Shown here piece by piece: positions 3,897-33,079 of a stretch of 33,079 nt of DNA. The stretch lies in assembly GCA_029858425.1 (NCBI GenBank), contig JAOUFE010000012.1, positions 1 to 33,079 of the forward strand, given 5' to 3'. Each line of letters starts with the position of its first letter. Position 1 is the stretch's first letter. The DNA is from Spirochaetia bacterium (GTDB taxonomy: Bacteria; Spirochaetota; Leptospiria; Turneriellales; JAOUFE01). The translations under genes and the position numbers were made by a program. The notes under the pieces are model-generated. The model was not told the DNA's origin, did no database searches, and was given only the letters and a program-made list of their open reading frames with translations.

Positions 3897-4862
3897 ATGC
3901 AATGGGCCAATATTATATTAACCATATCCGGGCTTGCCCTGTTTGAATTGATTTGCAGCATCGACAATGCCATTATTAATGCCGAAATTTTATCTACCAT
4001 GCAGGAGCGCGCCCGAAAATGGTTTTTGCTATGGGGGTTTGGTTTTGCCGTTTTTTTTGTACGCGGATTTCTTCCCTTGATGATCGTCTATGTTGTAAAT
4101 CCCTCTCTTGGATTATGGGGGGCGTTTACGGCCATGTTTAGCCATGACCCGGAGATTTCCAGAGCAATTGAAGCTTCTGCGCCCATTTTATATATGGGGG
4201 GCGGAATTTTTCTTTTATTTTTGGCTTTGTACTGGCTATTTCTGGAGGAAAAAAACATAGGAATGCATGTTGAAAAAATTATCATGACTCACGGATTCTG
4301 GTTCTATGCGATTGCCAGTATAATACTAACCGTTGTCGTCTGGTTTTCCATGCAAATGGATACTCTGCGGGCATTTGGAGCTGTGGTCGGTTCCAGCGTT
4401 TTTTTTATTACTCACGGGTTTAAGCACAACGCGGAAGAAAGCGAGAAAAAACTTATCGATCAAAAATCGGGCAGGTTATCTGATTTAAGCAAACTTCTTT
4501 ACCTCGAAGTTATTGATACCACCTTTTCTATCGACGGGGTTCTCGGGGCATTTGCATTTACTCTGGCGGTTCCCCTGATTTTGGTGGGCAACGCCTTTGG
4601 AGCATATGCAGTTCGTCGCTTGACTATTGGAAATATTGAGAAGATTAAGAATTATCTTTATCTAAAAAATGGCGCCATGTACTCCATATTGGCTCTCGGA
4701 GTGGTGATGTTGGCCGATGGTTTTTCAGTTCACGTCCCTACCTATGTTTCGCCGGGTATTACCTTTTTATTTGTGGGCTATTTTTACTGGAAGTCCATAA
4801 AACATCCGGAATATTTAAAAACGAGCGGCAATAAAAAAAAGGATAAAAAAAACAAGAAATAA
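3897..4862 (+). CDS. DUF475 / TerC-like integral membrane protein
   Basis: This 321-residue polytopic membrane protein begins with FELICSIDNAIINAEIL, the acidic in-membrane motif typical of the TerC/DUF475 group. The partner motif sits in the second half as LEVIDTTFSIDGVLGAFAFT. Such paired Glu/Asp motifs in an inverted repeat are known in the LysE/TerC/MntP transporter superfamily, whose characterised members export Mn2+ or protect from metal and tellurite stress. About eight hydrophobic segments are visible, and the tail is very lysine-rich (KKKDKKNKK). The gene stands alone on the plus strand and converges with a lipoprotein gene 10 bases away. The Shine-Dalgarno (AAAAG) is weak. The metal-ion role is a family inference. 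Confidence 0.8.
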   Translation: MQWANIILTISGLALFELICSIDNAIINAEILSTMQERARKWFLLWGFGFAVFFVRGFLPLMIVYVVNPSLGLWGAFTAMFSHDPEISRAIEASAPILYMGGGIFLLFLALYWLFLEEKNIGMHVEKIIMTHGFWFYAIASIILTVVVWFSMQMDTLRAFGAVVGSSVFFITHGFKHNAEESEKKLIDQKSGRLSDLSKLLYLEVIDTTFSIDGVLGAFAFTLAVPLILVGNAFGAYAVRRLTIGNIEKIKNYLYLKNGAMYSILALGVVMLADGFSVHVPTYVSPGITFLFVGYFYWKSIKHPEYLKTSGNKKKDKKNKK

Positions 4863-26159: not shown

Positions 26160-29100
26160 TTAATCCCTTTCATCTGCTCCTATAGACCAACCGGCGCCAA
26201 GGGCGCTTGACGGTACAGTAAGCGTACAGGGAAGACCCGCAAGATTTGCAGTACGCAATAAGCTGTCCATGTCATTGGTAAATGTCTTTGAAGCTGAATT
26301 TGTTGTATTGGACATATCAAGGCCGCCAAAAAATACATTGCAGGTGGCAGCAACTGGCGCTTTGAGATGAAAGTCTGGAAACACATTTGTCGCGCCCGCT
26401 GTGGCGTTGGTACCCCATAATACGATTGGCATATTGGAAACCGTGGCGGTTGCAAACACGGGGGTGAAGGTAATCAACGAAGCCGAGGCGGTGCAATTAA
26501 CCCCTGTTATCGTTCTAACGATCCCGTCATTGTTATAGACGAAGAATTGATTAAGCACATACCGGGAATCGGCATTGCATGCCGCGACTTCAATGGTACT
26601 GGTTGTTCCATCATATGTAGTATTGACATCGGGACCATCCTGTGTAATGTCATACATTACCGGGGCTTTTACAAAAAGCTGATTACCTGTATTGGCTATA
26701 TTAATGTTACCAGAGGCAGTCACGGCTCCTGTTCCATTGACGTTCAGGTTTGAAGTCGCAACAGTATAACAGTTTCTTGTTGTATCCGTAACGGCTGCGG
26801 CATTAATGCATGTCGTTCCTGTGGTCAAGGCATTCGGCTTATCGGCATAAACATAATATTTACCGAGCGAGCCACTATCAAAAACATTGTTATTTAACAG
26901 ATTAGTTGGGCTGGATGTTGTAGTTGTCGAGGACGAAAACTCATAAATTCCATAACGGTTATTAGCCATGCCGGAATTAAATATATTATTATTTTTTATA
27001 TCTATCGTTGGGTTGATAACTGTCCCCACATTGTCGACCCATATTCCATAGGAGTTTGTCAAACCGCTACCGCCATGAATGGTATTGTTATACAATTCAA
27101 TTCGAGGAGCATAGGTTGTGGATCTGTTGGAAATATATACTCCATACGTATTTGATCCGCTGCCCGCATTAATTGAGTTATTATACACTTCCATATTGTT
27201 TGCCATGCCTATTGTGGCGCTTACATTGGTGTAATAAACTCCATACGAAGAACCTGTTCCGGAAACAGCATTATCTATTGTATTATTATTAACTACAGTA
27301 TGGGATGCTTGATTGCTGGTCGTTTGCCGTGTATTATAAATACCATATACGCTACCATTTGTCCCCCCAAGAACACTAATTTTATTACTGGAAATAGTGA
27401 AGGGAGACCATTGCGAAGTAGATACGCCATCTGTTGAAATGCCATAGTTGCTCACCCAGCTTGCGTTGCTACTACTATTGTCTACAGCGATTGTATTATT
27501 ACTCATAGTGGTAATATGACCTTGGTCATTTAATCCATACATAGTATTGTTCATATTTATGTCTCCCTTAATAGTTATCGTATTGTTGGCAATGGTATCA
27601 ATGATTCCATAACCAGTTACTCCCTGAACTGGATCGGTGTATTGATTATTCATTATTCCCGTTTGCTTGGCATTGATGGTGTTATTGGCTATTATTGTAA
27701 TAGACACAGTAGGCGTACCATTGCTTGAATTCAGGCTTGGATTAAAAAATGCACTTGGGTCATTGTTTATTCCAGTACTGGCCGCATTGATGATATTGCC
27801 TATAATAACAGGCGAACCAATTCCGCTAATCAACGAGGTACTAGTATTGTATATTCCAATTCCCATGAAGTTTTTGTCGACGTTTATGGTGTTGTTGGTG
27901 ATCAATGGCGCTCCAAAGGCATTCATTATGCCTATAGACGCAAGGGTATTACCACCGTTAATTATATTTCCATTAATATTCGGCGATGACAAAATATTGA
28001 GAAGAGAAAAAGTATTGTTAGATATGCCTATGGCATATACACCCACTCCTCCATTGATGGTATTACTTAAAATACTCGGAGAAGAACCGGTGTTCGCGAC
28101 ACCAGATGAAAACATTGCAGCGGCGCCGGCATTTATAGTATTGTTTTGAATAATCAACTGCAACTGGCAGTTTTCTGTGGATATGCCAAAAGTATTAGCA
28201 ATACCGGTAGAAACATTGCTGAATGCAAACCCTTCAATTAAAGTATAGCGAGCAATATCACGAGCATAGGCAACATAGCTTGTATTCGCCCATACGTTTG
28301 TCTTGTTATTCATATTCTGGGCTGTAAAATTTGCATCCCATCCGCCATGAAGACTGATATTATCTTTAATAACCAATGTCTCTTGATAGGCTGTACCCGA
28401 ATTGTCCCTGGACGCTACATAAACATCTTTTTTGCCCAGTTGAAGCGCAGCCGAAATCCCTCCCATGATCGTTTGAAATGGCTTTGATTTGTTGCCTACC
28501 ACATTTACATCCGTGCAGGTAGATGTTGCTGAGAATTTTGATAAGCCGCCAGCCGTGGCCGCATAAATACTGCTACCTGATGCGTAAACTCCATATACAG
28601 TATTGCTTCCCAGTCCGTTGGCAATTGTATAATTGACCCATGAAGTTCCACCGTTTACAGAGACGAACAAGCCATTATTGGTGGCTGCGTAAATAACATC
28701 GGCTGTTACATCAACATAAACATTGTTAATTTGATTGGTCGATAGATAGTTAGTCCATGTTGAACCCGCATTCGTAGAAACGGCCATTCCATTAGCAGTA
28801 GCCGCATAAATCCGGTCTCCCGCACTAAAGACGCCATTGATTATACTGCTGGATCCAAAGCCGGCGGTCGCCGCCGTATAAGTTGCCCAACCCACCCATG
28901 GATTATTCACGGATAACCCGCCTGCAGTAGCTGCGTAAGTAAAGAGAGTTTTCGGATCTACAAATACACCATTGATAACATCATTTACGAGCCCACCGGC
29001 AGTATTCGCATTCGTCTGATTAGACCATGTAGTTCCGTTGGAAGAGGATGACAATCCACCTGTTGTCGCCGCAGTTATTCCAGAAAATAAACTCTTGGTG

Positions 29101-29855
29101 ATTTTATTCGTTGTATTGCTTCCAAGTCCATTTGCGGTTGTATAATTGATCCAGGTAGAGCCGTTATCCAGAGAGATGGACACGCCACCAGATGTAGCAG
29201 CATAAAGAGTATTACCTGCCGGGTATAAACCATTAACAGTATTACTACCCAGGCCATTGGCAGTAGTACTGTTGCTAAATGTCTGGCCATTATTAATAGA
29301 AACAGAAACTCCCCCGGTGGTAGCTACATATACATGGGAACCTGTTGCGTAAACGTCTTTAACGACATTACTCCCAAGACCATTGGCTGTAGTCAGATTT
29401 GTCCAGGTTCCCGACGAACCGGCAGCAGGAACCGGGCAGTACACATAAATTACGCTGTCAACAACATCAAAGGAGCCGCTCCCATATTGACCGGCGGTGG
29501 TGGTGTCCGCTTTAACGCGCCAGTAATAGGTTCCGTTCGTACTGAGATCTACCGTAAGACTGCTATTTGGAGCATCTACTGTAAAAGGACTGCCGGTTAT
29601 CGTATTGGAAAATGCGCTGTCCGTGGCAACATCAATGGTATATTTTGAGGCGCCAGCCTTGGCTGTCCATTGAAATACCACTTTAAGTCCGAGTACTTCA
29701 CCATCTTTGGGCGTTAATATGTTAGGCGGCGAGGTATCTGCCAGTTTGTTAATAAAATTCCCGTTTAGTAAATCAGCGGTAGAAGTATCTCCCTTGCATC
29801 CTGCCAATATGGCTGCCATCAGCAGCCCTGTAAAAATTCTTGTTCTTGTGTTCAT
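26160..29855 (-). CDS. Giant surface lipoprotein: Ig/FnIII-like domain, seven-blade propeller, beta-helix
   Basis: This protein of about 1231 residues has a consensus lipobox (AAILAGC, Cys20). A beta-sandwich follows (about 44-132: TPKDGEVLGLKVVFQWTAK, YYWRVKAD). Next come seven degenerate repeats of about 41-48 residues (about 150-445) with the pattern IYAATAGGLSVS-nnGtTW-NYTTANGLGSN, which fits a propeller. A right-handed beta-helix with many NNTINAG-type rungs runs from about 450 to 1040. Its entry block KPFQTIMGGISAAL and GGWDANF resemble DUF1565-type proteins, and the end GWSIGADERD is typical of such proteins. ATG 29855 is chosen for AGGAG and the signal peptide. It is probably a surface adhesin or glycan-binding protein, which is inference. 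Hairpin repeats flank the gene on both sides. Confidence 0.8.
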   Translation of the reverse strand: MNTRTRIFTGLLMAAILAGCKGDTSTADLLNGNFINKLADTSPPNILTPKDGEVLGLKVVFQWTAKAGASKYTIDVATDSAFSNTITGSPFTVDAPNSSLTVDLSTNGTYYWRVKADTTTAGQYGSGSFDVVDSVIYVYCPVPAAGSSGTWTNLTTANGLGSNVVKDVYATGSHVYVATTGGVSVSINNGQTFSNSTTANGLGSNTVNGLYPAGNTLYAATSGGVSISLDNGSTWINYTTANGLGSNTTNKITKSLFSGITAATTGGLSSSSNGTTWSNQTNANTAGGLVNDVINGVFVDPKTLFTYAATAGGLSVNNPWVGWATYTAATAGFGSSSIINGVFSAGDRIYAATANGMAVSTNAGSTWTNYLSTNQINNVYVDVTADVIYAATNNGLFVSVNGGTSWVNYTIANGLGSNTVYGVYASGSSIYAATAGGLSKFSATSTCTDVNVVGNKSKPFQTIMGGISAALQLGKKDVYVASRDNSGTAYQETLVIKDNISLHGGWDANFTAQNMNNKTNVWANTSYVAYARDIARYTLIEGFAFSNVSTGIANTFGISTENCQLQLIIQNNTINAGAAAMFSSGVANTGSSPSILSNTINGGVGVYAIGISNNTFSLLNILSSPNINGNIINGGNTLASIGIMNAFGAPLITNNTINVDKNFMGIGIYNTSTSLISGIGSPVIIGNIINAASTGINNDPSAFFNPSLNSSNGTPTVSITIIANNTINAKQTGIMNNQYTDPVQGVTGYGIIDTIANNTITIKGDINMNNTMYGLNDQGHITTMSNNTIAVDNSSSNASWVSNYGISTDGVSTSQWSPFTISSNKISVLGGTNGSVYGIYNTRQTTSNQASHTVVNNNTIDNAVSGTGSSYGVYYTNVSATIGMANNMEVYNNSINAGSGSNTYGVYISNRSTTYAPRIELYNNTIHGGSGLTNSYGIWVDNVGTVINPTIDIKNNNIFNSGMANNRYGIYEFSSSTTTTSSPTNLLNNNVFDSGSLGKYYVYADKPNALTTGTTCINAAAVTDTTRNCYTVATSNLNVNGTGAVTASGNINIANTGNQLFVKAPVMYDITQDGPDVNTTYDGTTSTIEVAACNADSRYVLNQFFVYNNDGIVRTITGVNCTASASLITFTPVFATATVSNMPIVLWGTNATAGATNVFPDFHLKAPVAATCNVFFGGLDMSNTTNSASKTFTNDMDSLLRTANLAGLPCTLTVPSSALGAGWSIGADERD

Positions 29856-29872
29856 TTTATTCTCCTGTTTTT

Positions 29873-29928
29873 GGGAGGGGCTTGGCACGCCCCTCGCTAC
29901 AACCGCCGGGCGGTTTTCGCTACCCCCC
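29873..29928. repeat. Intergenic hairpin repeat, copy B
   Basis: This 56-bp relative of copies A and C contains the same 15-mer (29893-29907). The first hairpin is different in sequence but equal in shape (GAGGGGC / GCCCCTC). AACCGCC pairs with GGCGGTT in the second. It fills nearly all of the gap between the barrel-protein stop and the lipoprotein Shine-Dalgarno. Confidence 0.75.
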
Positions 29929-29942
29929 GCATTATGTGTTCT

Positions 29943-31049
29943 CTAAAAATTCACATTTATCCCCAACTGCGCCATTGGTATATAGGTAAAGATCGTCTTT
30001 TGGGGCGATTTAAAGCTTTCGATTTGTGCATTAAACGTGCCGTCAAAAACCAGGCGCAAGGTATCGGTGGCCAGCCAGGCAAATTCAAATCCGGCGCTGA
30101 CATAAGGGATATCGTTGGTTACGTTTTGGGACACAGAGCCGCTTACCTGCGACGACTGGTTTATCACCCCGCCGCCCAGTTTAGGCGAGATGTAAAATAT
30201 ATCAGAGAGGCGAAAATCAACGCCCACCGCGCCGCCCATCATAAGATTGGTAGCCAATAGCGTAAGGTTGTTGGCGGTAAAATAATTGGTCGCGCCTTTT
30301 TTAATCTCGTGCTGATAGTAGCTTAAACCGGCTTCAATAAAAAACTGATCCCAGACAATGGGCATGTTGCCGCGAAGTAAAAACCCAAAAGCCGGCAATT
30401 TTGTGCTGAACTGGTCTGACCAGCCGCCGGCAAAAAAGTTGCCGCCTGCTCGAAGACCAAGAGCAATGTTGGCAAATATTTTCTTGGCCGGTTTTTTATT
30501 GCCTCGGTTTTTTTCCCAGTCTTCTTTATTTGGCAGCACTTTGGATGCTTCTTTGGCGGCCTTGTCGGCAACTTCGCCAATGGTCGTAAAGAGCTGATTG
30601 TTGGCCGGAATTTCAATGACCTGCTCGGCAATCACCCTTTTTTCGGTAATGCTGATAATGCGAACCGTGGTACTGACGGCATCCTGGTCTTTGCCGCCCT
30701 GCTTGATGATAAAGCCGCCGTTAATGACAACATCCTGCGTGGAATACAATCCAAGGTTTATGCCGTAGGTGGCCGTATAACATTCATTATCATAAAGAAA
30801 GTTTTTTTTGGCCACCGTTTTCCATTCCTGTTCGGGGGTCTCGCTAAAGGCAAATTTGGTTTTGAGCTTTGCCCGGATGGAATCGGTAATGGTTGCCTCG
30901 AGGTATTCATAATTGGGGTTTTTATCAATATTTTTAAAGGGGAGAATAATTACCTTTTGCATTTCGTCGGCATACAAATCGCCGCATACAGCGGGCAACA
31001 TGTATGTAGCCGCCGCTAAAAAAAGATATATTATTTTTTTCATATTCAT
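29943..31049 (-). CDS. Exported protein: FlgO/TolB-N-like domain plus outer-membrane beta-barrel
   Basis: This 368-residue protein begins with a signal peptide (MNMKKIIYLFLAAATYML, likely cut near LYA-DE). The first mature domain (MQKVIILPFKNIDKNPNYEYLEATITDSIRAKL onward, to about residue 165) resembles the TolB-N/CsgG/FlgO-type fold. After a lysine-rich linker (NRGNKKPAKK) the C-terminal half shows alternating strands ending in Phe (GINVNF), like an OmpA/OprF-style eight-strand barrel. ATG 31049 is preferred because AAGGA precedes it and the signal peptide begins there; the open frame reaches further upstream only by running through repeat copy C. It lies just upstream of the giant lipoprotein gene with repeat B between, so the two may share a transcript from the promoter at 31392-31420. 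Confidence 0.75.
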   Translation of the reverse strand: MNMKKIIYLFLAAATYMLPAVCGDLYADEMQKVIILPFKNIDKNPNYEYLEATITDSIRAKLKTKFAFSETPEQEWKTVAKKNFLYDNECYTATYGINLGLYSTQDVVINGGFIIKQGGKDQDAVSTTVRIISITEKRVIAEQVIEIPANNQLFTTIGEVADKAAKEASKVLPNKEDWEKNRGNKKPAKKIFANIALGLRAGGNFFAGGWSDQFSTKLPAFGFLLRGNMPIVWDQFFIEAGLSYYQHEIKKGATNYFTANNLTLLATNLMMGGAVGVDFRLSDIFYISPKLGGGVINQSSQVSGSVSQNVTNDIPYVSAGFEFAWLATDTLRLVFDGTFNAQIESFKSPQKTIFTYIPMAQLGINVNF

Positions 31050-31063
31050 TTTTTCCTTTTTTT

Positions 31064-31170
31064 GAGGGGGGAAGTTTCCCCCCTCGCTACAACCGCCGGG
31101 GATTTTGGCAGGGAACGGTCGCGACCGTTCCCTGCAACGGAATTCAACCCGGCGTTTTTCGCTAACCCCC
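31064..31170. repeat. Intergenic hairpin repeat, copy C, with inserted palindrome
   Basis: This 107-bp version of the A/B element carries the shared 15-mer at 31083-31097 and a GGGGGGAA/TTTCCCCCC hairpin. In its second stem (CGCCGGG / CCCGGCG) it has gained about 50 extra bases, centred on a perfect 28-nt palindrome. It starts five bases after the stop of the hemerythrin remnant and ends 14 bases before the barrel-protein start. Confidence 0.75.
31108..31135. repeat. Perfect 28-nt palindrome inside repeat C
   Basis: GCAGGGAACGGTCG is followed immediately by its exact reverse complement CGACCGTTCCCTGC with no spacer. Copies A and B lack it at the equivalent place, so it looks like a separate palindromic unit inserted in copy C. 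Confidence 0.85.
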
Positions 31171-31175
31171 ACATA

Positions 31176-31458: not shown

Positions 31459-31735
31459 TTAGACTATTTTTCCGCTCATCGGACTCAACCCCGTTTCTTT
31501 TTTAAAGGCTTGATGAAAGGGGTTATAAGAAACAAAACCAGACTGGCAGGCAACCTGTTTAAGGGGCAGAAAATTGACTGTTTTCAAAAGTGTTTTGGTT
31601 TGCGGTAATGATTGATAAAATCCTGATATCTCTGGTGATGATATTGCTTTAAATATTCCGATATCTGATGAACTTTCAGATGTATTTGATCGGAAAAATC
31701 CCGGGGAAAAGGTTTTTTTCAGGTATTTTTTTCTT
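31459..31735 (-). pseudogene. Frameshifted AraC-family DNA-binding domain remnant
   Basis: Two frames on the minus strand together rebuild an AraC-type double helix-turn-helix. The first (about 31735 to 31600) reads FSDQIHLKVHQISEYL then QRYQDFINHYRKPKHF and stops at 31584-31586. The second (from about 31590) reads LKQVACQSGF, VSYNPFHQAFKKETGLSP and stops at 31459-31461. The join needs one frameshift near 31590-31600. No N-terminal ligand-binding domain is found before a stop just upstream of about 31735. The remnant lies directly upstream of the hemerythrin remnant. The match is by motif recognition only. Confidence 0.72.
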
Positions 31736-31821
31736 TTTTTATCAATAGCGCCATGGTTTACCCTATTTTTACCAAGTTTCTTATATGTAAACCTACCCGC
31801 TTTACCGAAGCATTCATCATT

Positions 31822-31834
31822 CGCGCAAAGCGCG
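31822..31834. repeat. CGCGC-AAA-GCGCG hairpin after the stop of copy 1
   Basis: A five-pair GC stem with a three-base loop abuts the stop codon of tandem copy 1. An identical hairpin abuts the stop of copy 2 at 32437-32449. Without a following T-run it may be an mRNA end-protecting hairpin. Confidence 0.5.
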
Positions 31835-32287
31835 TTACCCCTTCAAGGCTTCTTTCAATCGTTTGCGGGTTTCGGGTTTGGCCTTGTTTATCGCGGTAAT
31901 CATATCTTCCGCTTCGATGGATTTTCTTGAAATTTCGAAAAACCGGTCATCGTGCCGATTTAGTCTTTGCAGCATATACCCGACAACTGCCATAGACAGG
32001 GGAATCCAGATGCCGATAAACCACATCATCTGATTAAATCTGCCATCCATTTGAGACTGCACTGATTCAAACCGTTTATCTACTTGTTCAAACCGTTTAT
32101 CTACCTGTTCAAACCGTTTATTCATATCCTCGCGCAGATTTTTAATCTCGCGAATTGTATCCTCGCGTAAACTCTTGATTTCCCGCAAAATATCGCTTTC
32201 AGCAGAATATACCGCGCCTGAAGGCAACGATATAGCCAAAAGCAGAGAAAATCTTACAAGAAATTGTTTTATAGTATTGTTCTTCAT
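31835..32287 (-). CDS. Small secreted-coil membrane protein, tandem copy 1
   Basis: This 150-residue protein has a signal peptide (FSLLLAISLPSGAVYSAES), then a coiled coil of charged heptads (DILREIKSLRED, DMNKRFEQVDKRFEQVDKRF), one strong membrane segment (MMWFIGIWIPLSMAVVGYML, about residues 86-106) and a basic tail ending in RKRLKEALKG. Predicted topology is periplasmic coil and cytoplasmic tail. The heptad FEQVDKR is encoded by 21-nt DNA repeats. The next gene upstream is a close paralogue: the last 43 residues are identical and the signal peptides nearly so, but the coils differ. The Shine-Dalgarno is weak. The family is not recognised; the layout recalls XhlA-type or DUF1640-type coil-plus-anchor proteins. 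Confidence 0.75.
   Translation of the reverse strand: MKNNTIKQFLVRFSLLLAISLPSGAVYSAESDILREIKSLREDTIREIKNLREDMNKRFEQVDKRFEQVDKRFESVQSQMDGRFNQMMWFIGIWIPLSMAVVGYMLQRLNRHDDRFFEISRKSIEAEDMITAINKAKPETRKRLKEALKG
32066..32121. repeat. Three 21-nt repeats encoding coiled-coil heptads
   Basis: The 14-mer TTCAAACCGTTTAT recurs at 32066, 32087 and 32108, exactly 21 bases apart, so each step adds one heptad to the coil without changing the frame. Copy 2 of the gene has fewer such units, consistent with expansion and contraction by slippage. Confidence 0.8.
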
Positions 32288-32373
32288 ACCAATGCATCGC
32301 CAAAATAACCAATTTTTTACACTTTTGCAGAAAAAAAACGCAAAGTCAAGAGAAAATCACGGAAAACGTCAGA

Positions 32374-32437
32374 ATCACGGATTCAACGGATTACGCGGAT
32401 TTTAAATTCAACATTCAAAACTCAAAATTCATCATTC
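32374..32437. repeat. Low-complexity A/T-rich repeat tract between tandem copies
   Basis: Between copies 1 and 2 lies TCACGGATTCAACGGATTAC with further short echoes (GGATT three times), followed by four near-repeats of ATTCAACATTC/AAAATTCATC. Such GGATT- and ATTC-type tracts turn up between genes in many environmental genomes, as I recall. They are absent next to copy 1's stop, so the tract was probably added after duplication. Confidence 0.45.
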
Positions 32438-32449
32438 GCGCAAAGCGCG

Positions 32450-32902
32450 TTACCCCTTCAAGGCTTCTTTCAGTCGTTTTCGGGTTTCGGGTTTGGCCTT
32501 GTTTATCGCGGTAATCATATCTTCCGCTTCGATGGATTTTCTTGAAATTTCGAAAAACCGGTCATCGTGCCTGTTTAGACGTTGCAAGATATACCCGACA
32601 ACTGCCATAGACAGCGGAATCCAAAGGCCGATAAACCACATCAATTGATCAAAACGCTTGTCCACTTGTTCAAACCGCTTATTCATATCTTCACGCAAAG
32701 TCTTGAATTGGTTTGTTGTGTCTTCGCGCAGATTCCTGTTTTCTTCGTGAATGTTTTGGAATTCCCGGTTTGTATCCTCGCGCAGATTTTTAATCTCGCG
32801 CAAGATATCGACCTCAGACGAATACGCTGCGCTGGACGGCAGCGATATGGCCAGAAGTAGAAAAAATCTTACAAAAAATTGTTTTATAGTATTGTTCTTC
32901 AT
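32450..32902 (-). CDS. Small secreted-coil membrane protein, tandem copy 2
   Basis: This paralogue of copy 1, also 150 residues, has signal peptide FFLLLAISLPSSAAYSSEV. Its coil is built mainly from NLREDT-type units (REIKNLREDTNREF, ENRNLREDTTNQF, TLREDMNKRFEQVDKRF), then the membrane segment LMWFIGLWIPLSMAVVGYIL and a C-terminal tail identical to copy 1 from RLNRHDDRFFEIS to the end. The pattern of conserved ends and divergent coil suggests selection on the tail or anchor, with free variation, or specificity, in the periplasmic coil. Upstream DNA resembles that of copy 1. The function is unknown; a trimeric or dimeric scaffold or an envelope-spanning spacer is possible. Confidence 0.75.
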   Translation of the reverse strand: MKNNTIKQFFVRFFLLLAISLPSSAAYSSEVDILREIKNLREDTNREFQNIHEENRNLREDTTNQFKTLREDMNKRFEQVDKRFDQLMWFIGLWIPLSMAVVGYILQRLNRHDDRFFEISRKSIEAEDMITAINKAKPETRKRLKEALKG

Positions 32903-33016
32903 ACCAATGTATACCCAAAATAACCAACTTTTTTCACATTTGCAGAAAAAAGTGCAAAGTCAAGAGAAAAAATCACGAGCTGCGCGCGACTTGTACTGAG
33001 CGTCGAAGCAAACGCG

Positions 33017-33079
33017 TTACCCCTTCAAGGCTTCTTTCAATCGTTTGCGGGTTTCGGGTTTGGCCTTGTTTATCGCAGT
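33017..33079 (-). CDS. Small secreted-coil membrane protein, tandem copy 3 (partial)
   Basis: Only the last 20 codons lie in the window. They read TAINKAKPETRKRLKEALKG and a TAA, identical in protein to the end of copies 1 and 2. The rest runs off the right edge. The flank after the stop differs from that of the other copies apart from the CGCG beside it. The array may go on further. Confidence 0.75.
   Translation of the reverse strand, partial: TAINKAKPETRKRLKEALKG

What the first reader, a model, noticed from the sequence alone, without database searches (positions are those of the whole stretch)
31811..33079. Tandem array of secreted coiled-coil membrane genes with conserved ends and variable coils
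At least three copies share near-identical signal peptide, anchor and a 43-residue identical tail, while the coiled coil differs in heptad make-up. In copy 1 the coil is built from 21-nt DNA repeats that change length in frame. Both complete copies are still 150 residues, as if length were constrained. This looks like duplication plus gene conversion of the ends with diversification in the middle, possibly a specificity system or a set of periplasmic rulers.
Basis: partly seen in the sequence, partly recalled or inferred. Interest (0 to 1): 0.65.

Follow-up and report, generated by a model that had tools for sequence, protein, structure and literature searches.

The report
Tandem heptad-repeat coiled-coil membrane protein genes
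At the end of this spirochete contig lie at least three head-to-tail copies of a small exported rod-shaped membrane protein; recombination between neighbours has kept their inner ends alike while the rod changes in whole seven-residue steps, a pattern that recurs in a widespread but unnamed bacterial protein family.

Summary
The array is real. Two complete 150-aa genes (31835-32287, 32450-32902, minus strand) and the last 20 codons of a third lie at the contig end. A fourth copy (136 aa) and a remote one (120 aa) lie on other contigs. Layout: signal peptide, coil of whole heptads, one TM helix, 45-aa tail.

The "gene conversion of the ends" idea holds for one end only. Between copies 1 and 2 the tail has 2 synonymous differences in 25 sites; the signal-peptide/N part has 17 in 30, so purifying selection keeps it alike. 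Against the dispersed copy the same tail has 11-14 in 25, so no DNA-level constraint explains the identity.

The coil is not diversifying by replacement: shared coil blocks have saturated synonymous change and no amino-acid change. Copies differ by whole 21-nt heptads. 150 aa is not a fixed length.

Similar arrays occur in five unrelated loci, and the family spans many phyla. Members are solitary; one sister-species copy is broken. No Pfam or NCBIfam family passes its cut-off. Best reading: an accessory inner-membrane coiled-coil scaffold evolving by birth and death, concerted evolution of the tail and heptad slippage. The function remains inferred.

The parts
31835..32287 (-). Copy 1, complete, 150 aa: signal peptide + 8-heptad coil + TM + tail
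   Evidence: A2 alignment
32450..32902 (-). Copy 2, complete, 150 aa, same architecture, different heptad make-up
   Evidence: structure model
33017..33079 (-). Copy 3, last 20 codons and stop only; contig ends here
   Evidence: the rest of this copy is not in the assembly
32204..32287 (-). Copy 1 signal peptide (residues 1-28)
   Evidence: sequence; helix 3-19 then a lower-confidence break at 20-29 in the model of copy 2
32819..32902 (-). Copy 2 signal peptide (residues 1-28)
   Evidence: sequence
32027..32194 (-). Copy 1 exported coil, 56 residues = 8.0 heptads
32642..32809 (-). Copy 2 exported coil, 56 residues = 8.0 heptads
32066..32121 (-). 21-nt tandem repeat coding (DKRFEQV)n in copy 1
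31838..31972 (-). Copy 1 tail, 45 residues identical to copy 2; DNA homogenised with copy 2
32453..32587 (-). Copy 2 tail
31813..31834 (-). 22-nt element after the stop of copy 1 (CGCGC-TTT-GCGCG stem-loop); three copies in the genome, each after a copy of this gene
32428..32449 (-). Same 22-nt element after copy 2
32288..32362 (-). Conserved upstream region of copy 1
32903..32977 (-). Conserved upstream region of copy 2; also found 88% identical on contig C8 before a different small membrane ORF

Best explanation
A lineage-specific tandem family of small inner-membrane proteins. Each is exported by its signal peptide, forms an alpha-helical rod of whole heptads in the periplasm (probably a parallel homo-oligomeric bundle), crosses the inner membrane once and ends in a conserved, mostly helical cytoplasmic tail. 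Shown: the duplication; homogenisation of the last ~120 coding bases between neighbours (gene conversion or unequal crossing-over); purifying selection on signal peptide, TM, tail and on shared coil blocks; coil differences made of whole 21-nt (heptad) units. Inferred: copies arise and die as accessory genes (birth and death with concerted evolution of the tail); because one DNA repeat equals one heptad, slippage keeps the coil register and is tolerated; the rod is an oligomerising, membrane-anchored scaffold or spacer of loose length, and the tail is its conserved working part.
For: Copy 1 vs 2 synonymous differences: N part 17/30, TM 6/17, tail 2/25 (Fisher p=0.0006); tail vs the dispersed copy 11.5-13.5/25; mosaic breakpoint at the TM/tail border, no permutation of 5000 reaching it. 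Shared coil block LREDMNKRFEQVDKRF: about 9 synonymous and 0 amino-acid differences. Coil lengths 56/56/42 residues = 8/8/6 heptads. Same architecture in relatives and in 31 genes of many phyla. Five unrelated tandem arrays with like ends and coils differing in whole heptads (or one 11-residue step); 33 of 50 gaps between close relatives are multiples of 7. No conserved neighbour. Sister-species copy broken. Model: one continuous helix 30-135, mean pLDDT 85.
Against: No functional data; oligomeric state and topology were not tested. Tail homology to the wider family is only suggestive (profile-profile 93.5% probability; single sequences score no better than the best shuffles). The gaps are not independent. 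The conversion tract rests on 25 synonymous sites. The genome is a fragmented assembly, so the array length is unknown.
Confidence: 0.6

Rival explanations
1. A specificity or self-recognition system: coils are under diversifying selection so that each paralogue pairs only with itself or with its own partner, while the tail signals through a common partner.
For: Copies differ in heptad make-up while the tail is homogenised; one unrelated array (L099, a deltaproteobacterium) has coil synonymous difference 10/14 against about 12/98 in the ends.
Against: Shared coil blocks show strong purifying selection; four of five other arrays differ mainly by number of near-identical heptads; no conserved partner gene; the L099 value may come from repeats aligned out of register.
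Confidence: 0.12
2. Periplasmic rulers: the rod has a set length that spaces the inner membrane from the cell wall or outer membrane.
For: Both array copies are exactly 8 heptads; coil lengths are quantised; coiled coils are known as spacers (review PMC5082667).
Against: Paralogues and relatives have 6 heptads or fewer, and other members range widely; spacers are expected to conserve length rather than sequence (PMC5082667), the reverse of what is seen.
Confidence: 0.12
3. Nearly neutral or decaying duplicates: the copies are redundant relics, and the pattern is only repeat slippage and local recombination.
For: Patchy distribution (14 of 48 genomes of the class), broken copy in the sister species, no conserved neighbours.
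Against: All complete copies are open, with strong purifying selection at large synonymous distance, so they were functional for a long time; upstream and 3' elements are conserved.
Confidence: 0.12
4. A phage or plasmid membrane gene (holin, spanin, XhlA-like hemolysin) carried as cargo.
For: Weak profile matches to XhlA, holin and spanin families.
Against: No relative in 50,697 phage records; only partial coil-region matches in 7 Vibrio plasmids; no confirmed relative in viral contigs; the profile matches are below curated cut-offs and mostly lie in coil or TM.
Confidence: 0.04

Closest known systems
Unnamed bacterial family: signal peptide, (DKRFEQV)n coil, TM, tail ending ALRELA..D..LAEILR..LL (for example Thermodesulfatator autotrophicus L052, Leptospiraceae SKYG32 L094)
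   Same: Same order of parts, same heptad motif, single TM, tail of similar place and helical pattern; chain of intermediates C2, G008/G013, L094
   Different: Window tail is a distinct variant (...AINKAKPETRKRLKEALKG); wider-family tail homology is only suggestive
Cytoplasmic-N variant of the same coil-TM proteins (Thiocystis, Lamprobacter, Methylomicrobium arrays)
   Same: Heptad-step coil length variation in tandem copies with like ends
   Different: No signal peptide and no tail; TM at the C-terminus, so the coil should lie in the cytoplasm
Borrelia Bdr proteins (spirochete multigene family; inner-membrane associated, function unknown: PMC10016077)
   Same: Paralogous family, inner-membrane association; a central repeat region of varying length is from my own knowledge
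   Different: Different repeat (own knowledge), carried on cp32 prophages; no sequence link found or tested here
Streptococcal M-protein gene clusters (own knowledge)
   Same: Tandem coiled-coil genes with conserved ends and variable coil
   Different: Cell-wall anchored by LPXTG with the variable end outermost and exposed; none of that is seen here

Membership tests
Unnamed SP-coil-TM-tail family | Signal peptide, whole-heptad DKRFEQV-type coil, one TM, C-terminal tail over 15 aa | tested here: met
Unnamed SP-coil-TM-tail family | TM and tail homologous when the coil is left out | tested here: inconclusive
   hhalign 93.5%, hmmsearch not separated from shuffles; intermediates
XhlA (PF10779) / holin families | Profile match above curated cut-off | tested here: not met
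   17.2 bits against 34.7
Any curated Pfam or NCBIfam family | Score above cut-off | tested here: not met
   (relatives)
Borrelia Bdr | Bdr repeat motif and conserved TM end | not tested
   No Bdr sequence was compared; the Bdr review looked up by id was not held
M-protein-like cluster | Sortase anchor motif at the C-terminus | tested here: not met
   The C-terminus reads ...KRLKEALKG, no LPXTG

The most novel reading that the evidence does not exclude
A widespread, unnamed class of membrane-anchored coiled-coil proteins uses a 21-nt, register-preserving minisatellite together with conversion of the anchor end to generate sets of rods that differ in length and pairing, a modular way to diversify envelope scaffolds.
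Probability: 0.15. Interest if true: 0.6.

Novelty: new member of a known kind. Interest (0 to 1): 0.33.

Why it matters
The family lacks a curated profile although it occurs in many phyla, often in several copies. It is a clean natural case in which the DNA repeat unit equals the structural unit of a coiled coil, so length can change without loss of register, while neighbouring copies exchange their anchor ends. If the tail has a partner or the coils pair selectively, this would be a general way of tuning envelope proteins.

Tried and rejected
Length constraint at 150 aa: rejected by the 136- and 120-aa paralogues. Conversion of the 5' end: rejected by synonymous divergence. Nucleotide constraint on the tail as the cause of identity: rejected, because the dispersed copy's tail is diverged. 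Phage or plasmid origin: no phage relatives. Dispersed-repeat origin of the 22-nt 3' element and of the upstream GCGTAATCCGTTGAATCCGTG motif: they occur only 3 and 2 times in the genome, each beside this gene. Conserved operon partner: none found. Profile hits in Pfam, NCBIfam, PHROGs, PADLOC and the PDB lie mostly in coil or TM; the curated ones are below cut-off; treated as compositional. No paper holds the heptad motif as text. No fold search was run, since a single helical rod would match any long helix.

Full report
Observation. The window is the whole of contig C153 of a 2.65-Mb, 220-contig assembly. At its right end lie two complete minus-strand genes of 150 codons and the tail of a third, cut by the contig end. 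A fourth copy (C183, 136 aa, beside a VapBC pair) and a divergent fifth (C2, 120 aa) are elsewhere in the genome; a remote C108 relative lacks signal peptide and tail. The repeat unit is about 615 bp.

Anatomy. Signal peptide (residues 1-28), exported coil (32-87), TM (about 88-106), tail (106-150; cytoplasmic by the positive-inside rule, inferred). AlphaFold on an 18-sequence alignment gives one helix from 30 to 135 and a short one at 138-149, mean pLDDT 85. The coil from DILREI to MWFIG is 56, 56 and 42 residues in copies 1, 2 and C183, that is 8.0, 8.0 and 6.0 heptads. In copy 1 part of it is a 21-nt tandem repeat, 97% matching.

How the copies evolved. Copies 1 and 2 differ at 17 of 30 synonymous sites in the N part, 6 of 17 in the TM and 2 of 25 in the tail; the tail of C183 differs from both at 11.5-13.5 of 25. 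Informative sites mostly join copy 2 with C183 upstream of the tail, and copy 1 with copy 2 in it; the breakpoint is stronger than in any of 5000 permutations. The tail identity is therefore recent exchange between neighbours, not DNA-level constraint. The N end is alike only as protein (pN 0.08). The shared coil block has about 9 synonymous and no amino-acid differences in 16 codons, so the coil is conserved per heptad and changes by whole units. A 22-nt stem-loop element follows copies 1, 2 and C183 and was found nowhere else in the genome.

Relatives. Three genomes of the order carry the full architecture (G008, G012, G013), with no second copy at those loci and without shared neighbours. 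The sister species G001 has one copy broken into several reading frames (an assembly error cannot be excluded). The query held the heptad motif, so the motif itself is an ascertainment effect. Five of these loci hold tandem copies: the ends are alike and the coils differ by 7, 14, 21 or, once, 11 residues. Among 50 gaps between close relatives 33 are multiples of 7 (pairs not independent). In the L099 array the coil is far more diverged at synonymous sites than both ends, although repeats aligned out of register may inflate this.

What it is. No curated Pfam or NCBIfam family passes its cut-off, for the window proteins or for eight relatives. Phage records hold no relative; plasmids only partial coil-region matches in Vibrio. 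No neighbour is conserved. This fits an accessory, self-contained inner-membrane coiled-coil scaffold. Function is inferred; a specificity system or a ruler is not excluded but has no positive support, and a strict ruler is disfavoured by length variation.

Verdict. Real and well-ordered, but a new member of a known kind: repeat-built membrane coiled-coil multigene families are known, Borrelia Bdr among them (PMC10016077 for inner-membrane association and unknown function; its repeat structure from my own knowledge). Its value lies in the clear case of one-sided tail conversion and register-preserving heptad slippage in an uncurated family.

Noticed in passing
window 31466-31590 (-): Remnant of an AraC-type HTH domain (PF00165, 28.8 bits, above cut-off) just downstream of copy 1; further AraC-like stretches lie in another frame, so it looks like a broken gene.
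   Followed up: partly
L037 (contig C8) 1098-1201, window 32899-33001: The ~100-nt upstream region of copy 2 recurs at 88% identity before a different small membrane ORF, as if an upstream region had been copied to another gene.
   Followed up: partly
L036 (contig C183) 1493-2100: VapB/VapC (PIN) toxin-antitoxin pair directly beside the dispersed copy.
   Followed up: yes
L040 about 4200-4560 (G001): Broken copy of the signal-peptide type in the sister species, with the tail type of the wider family.
   Followed up: partly
window 29943-31172 (-): Neighbouring 409-aa protein with weak outer-membrane beta-barrel similarity (PF13505, below cut-off).
   Followed up: no
window 26160-29888 (-): 1242-aa protein with many similar repeated segments (NGLGSNTV...), apparently a secreted repeat protein.
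   Followed up: no
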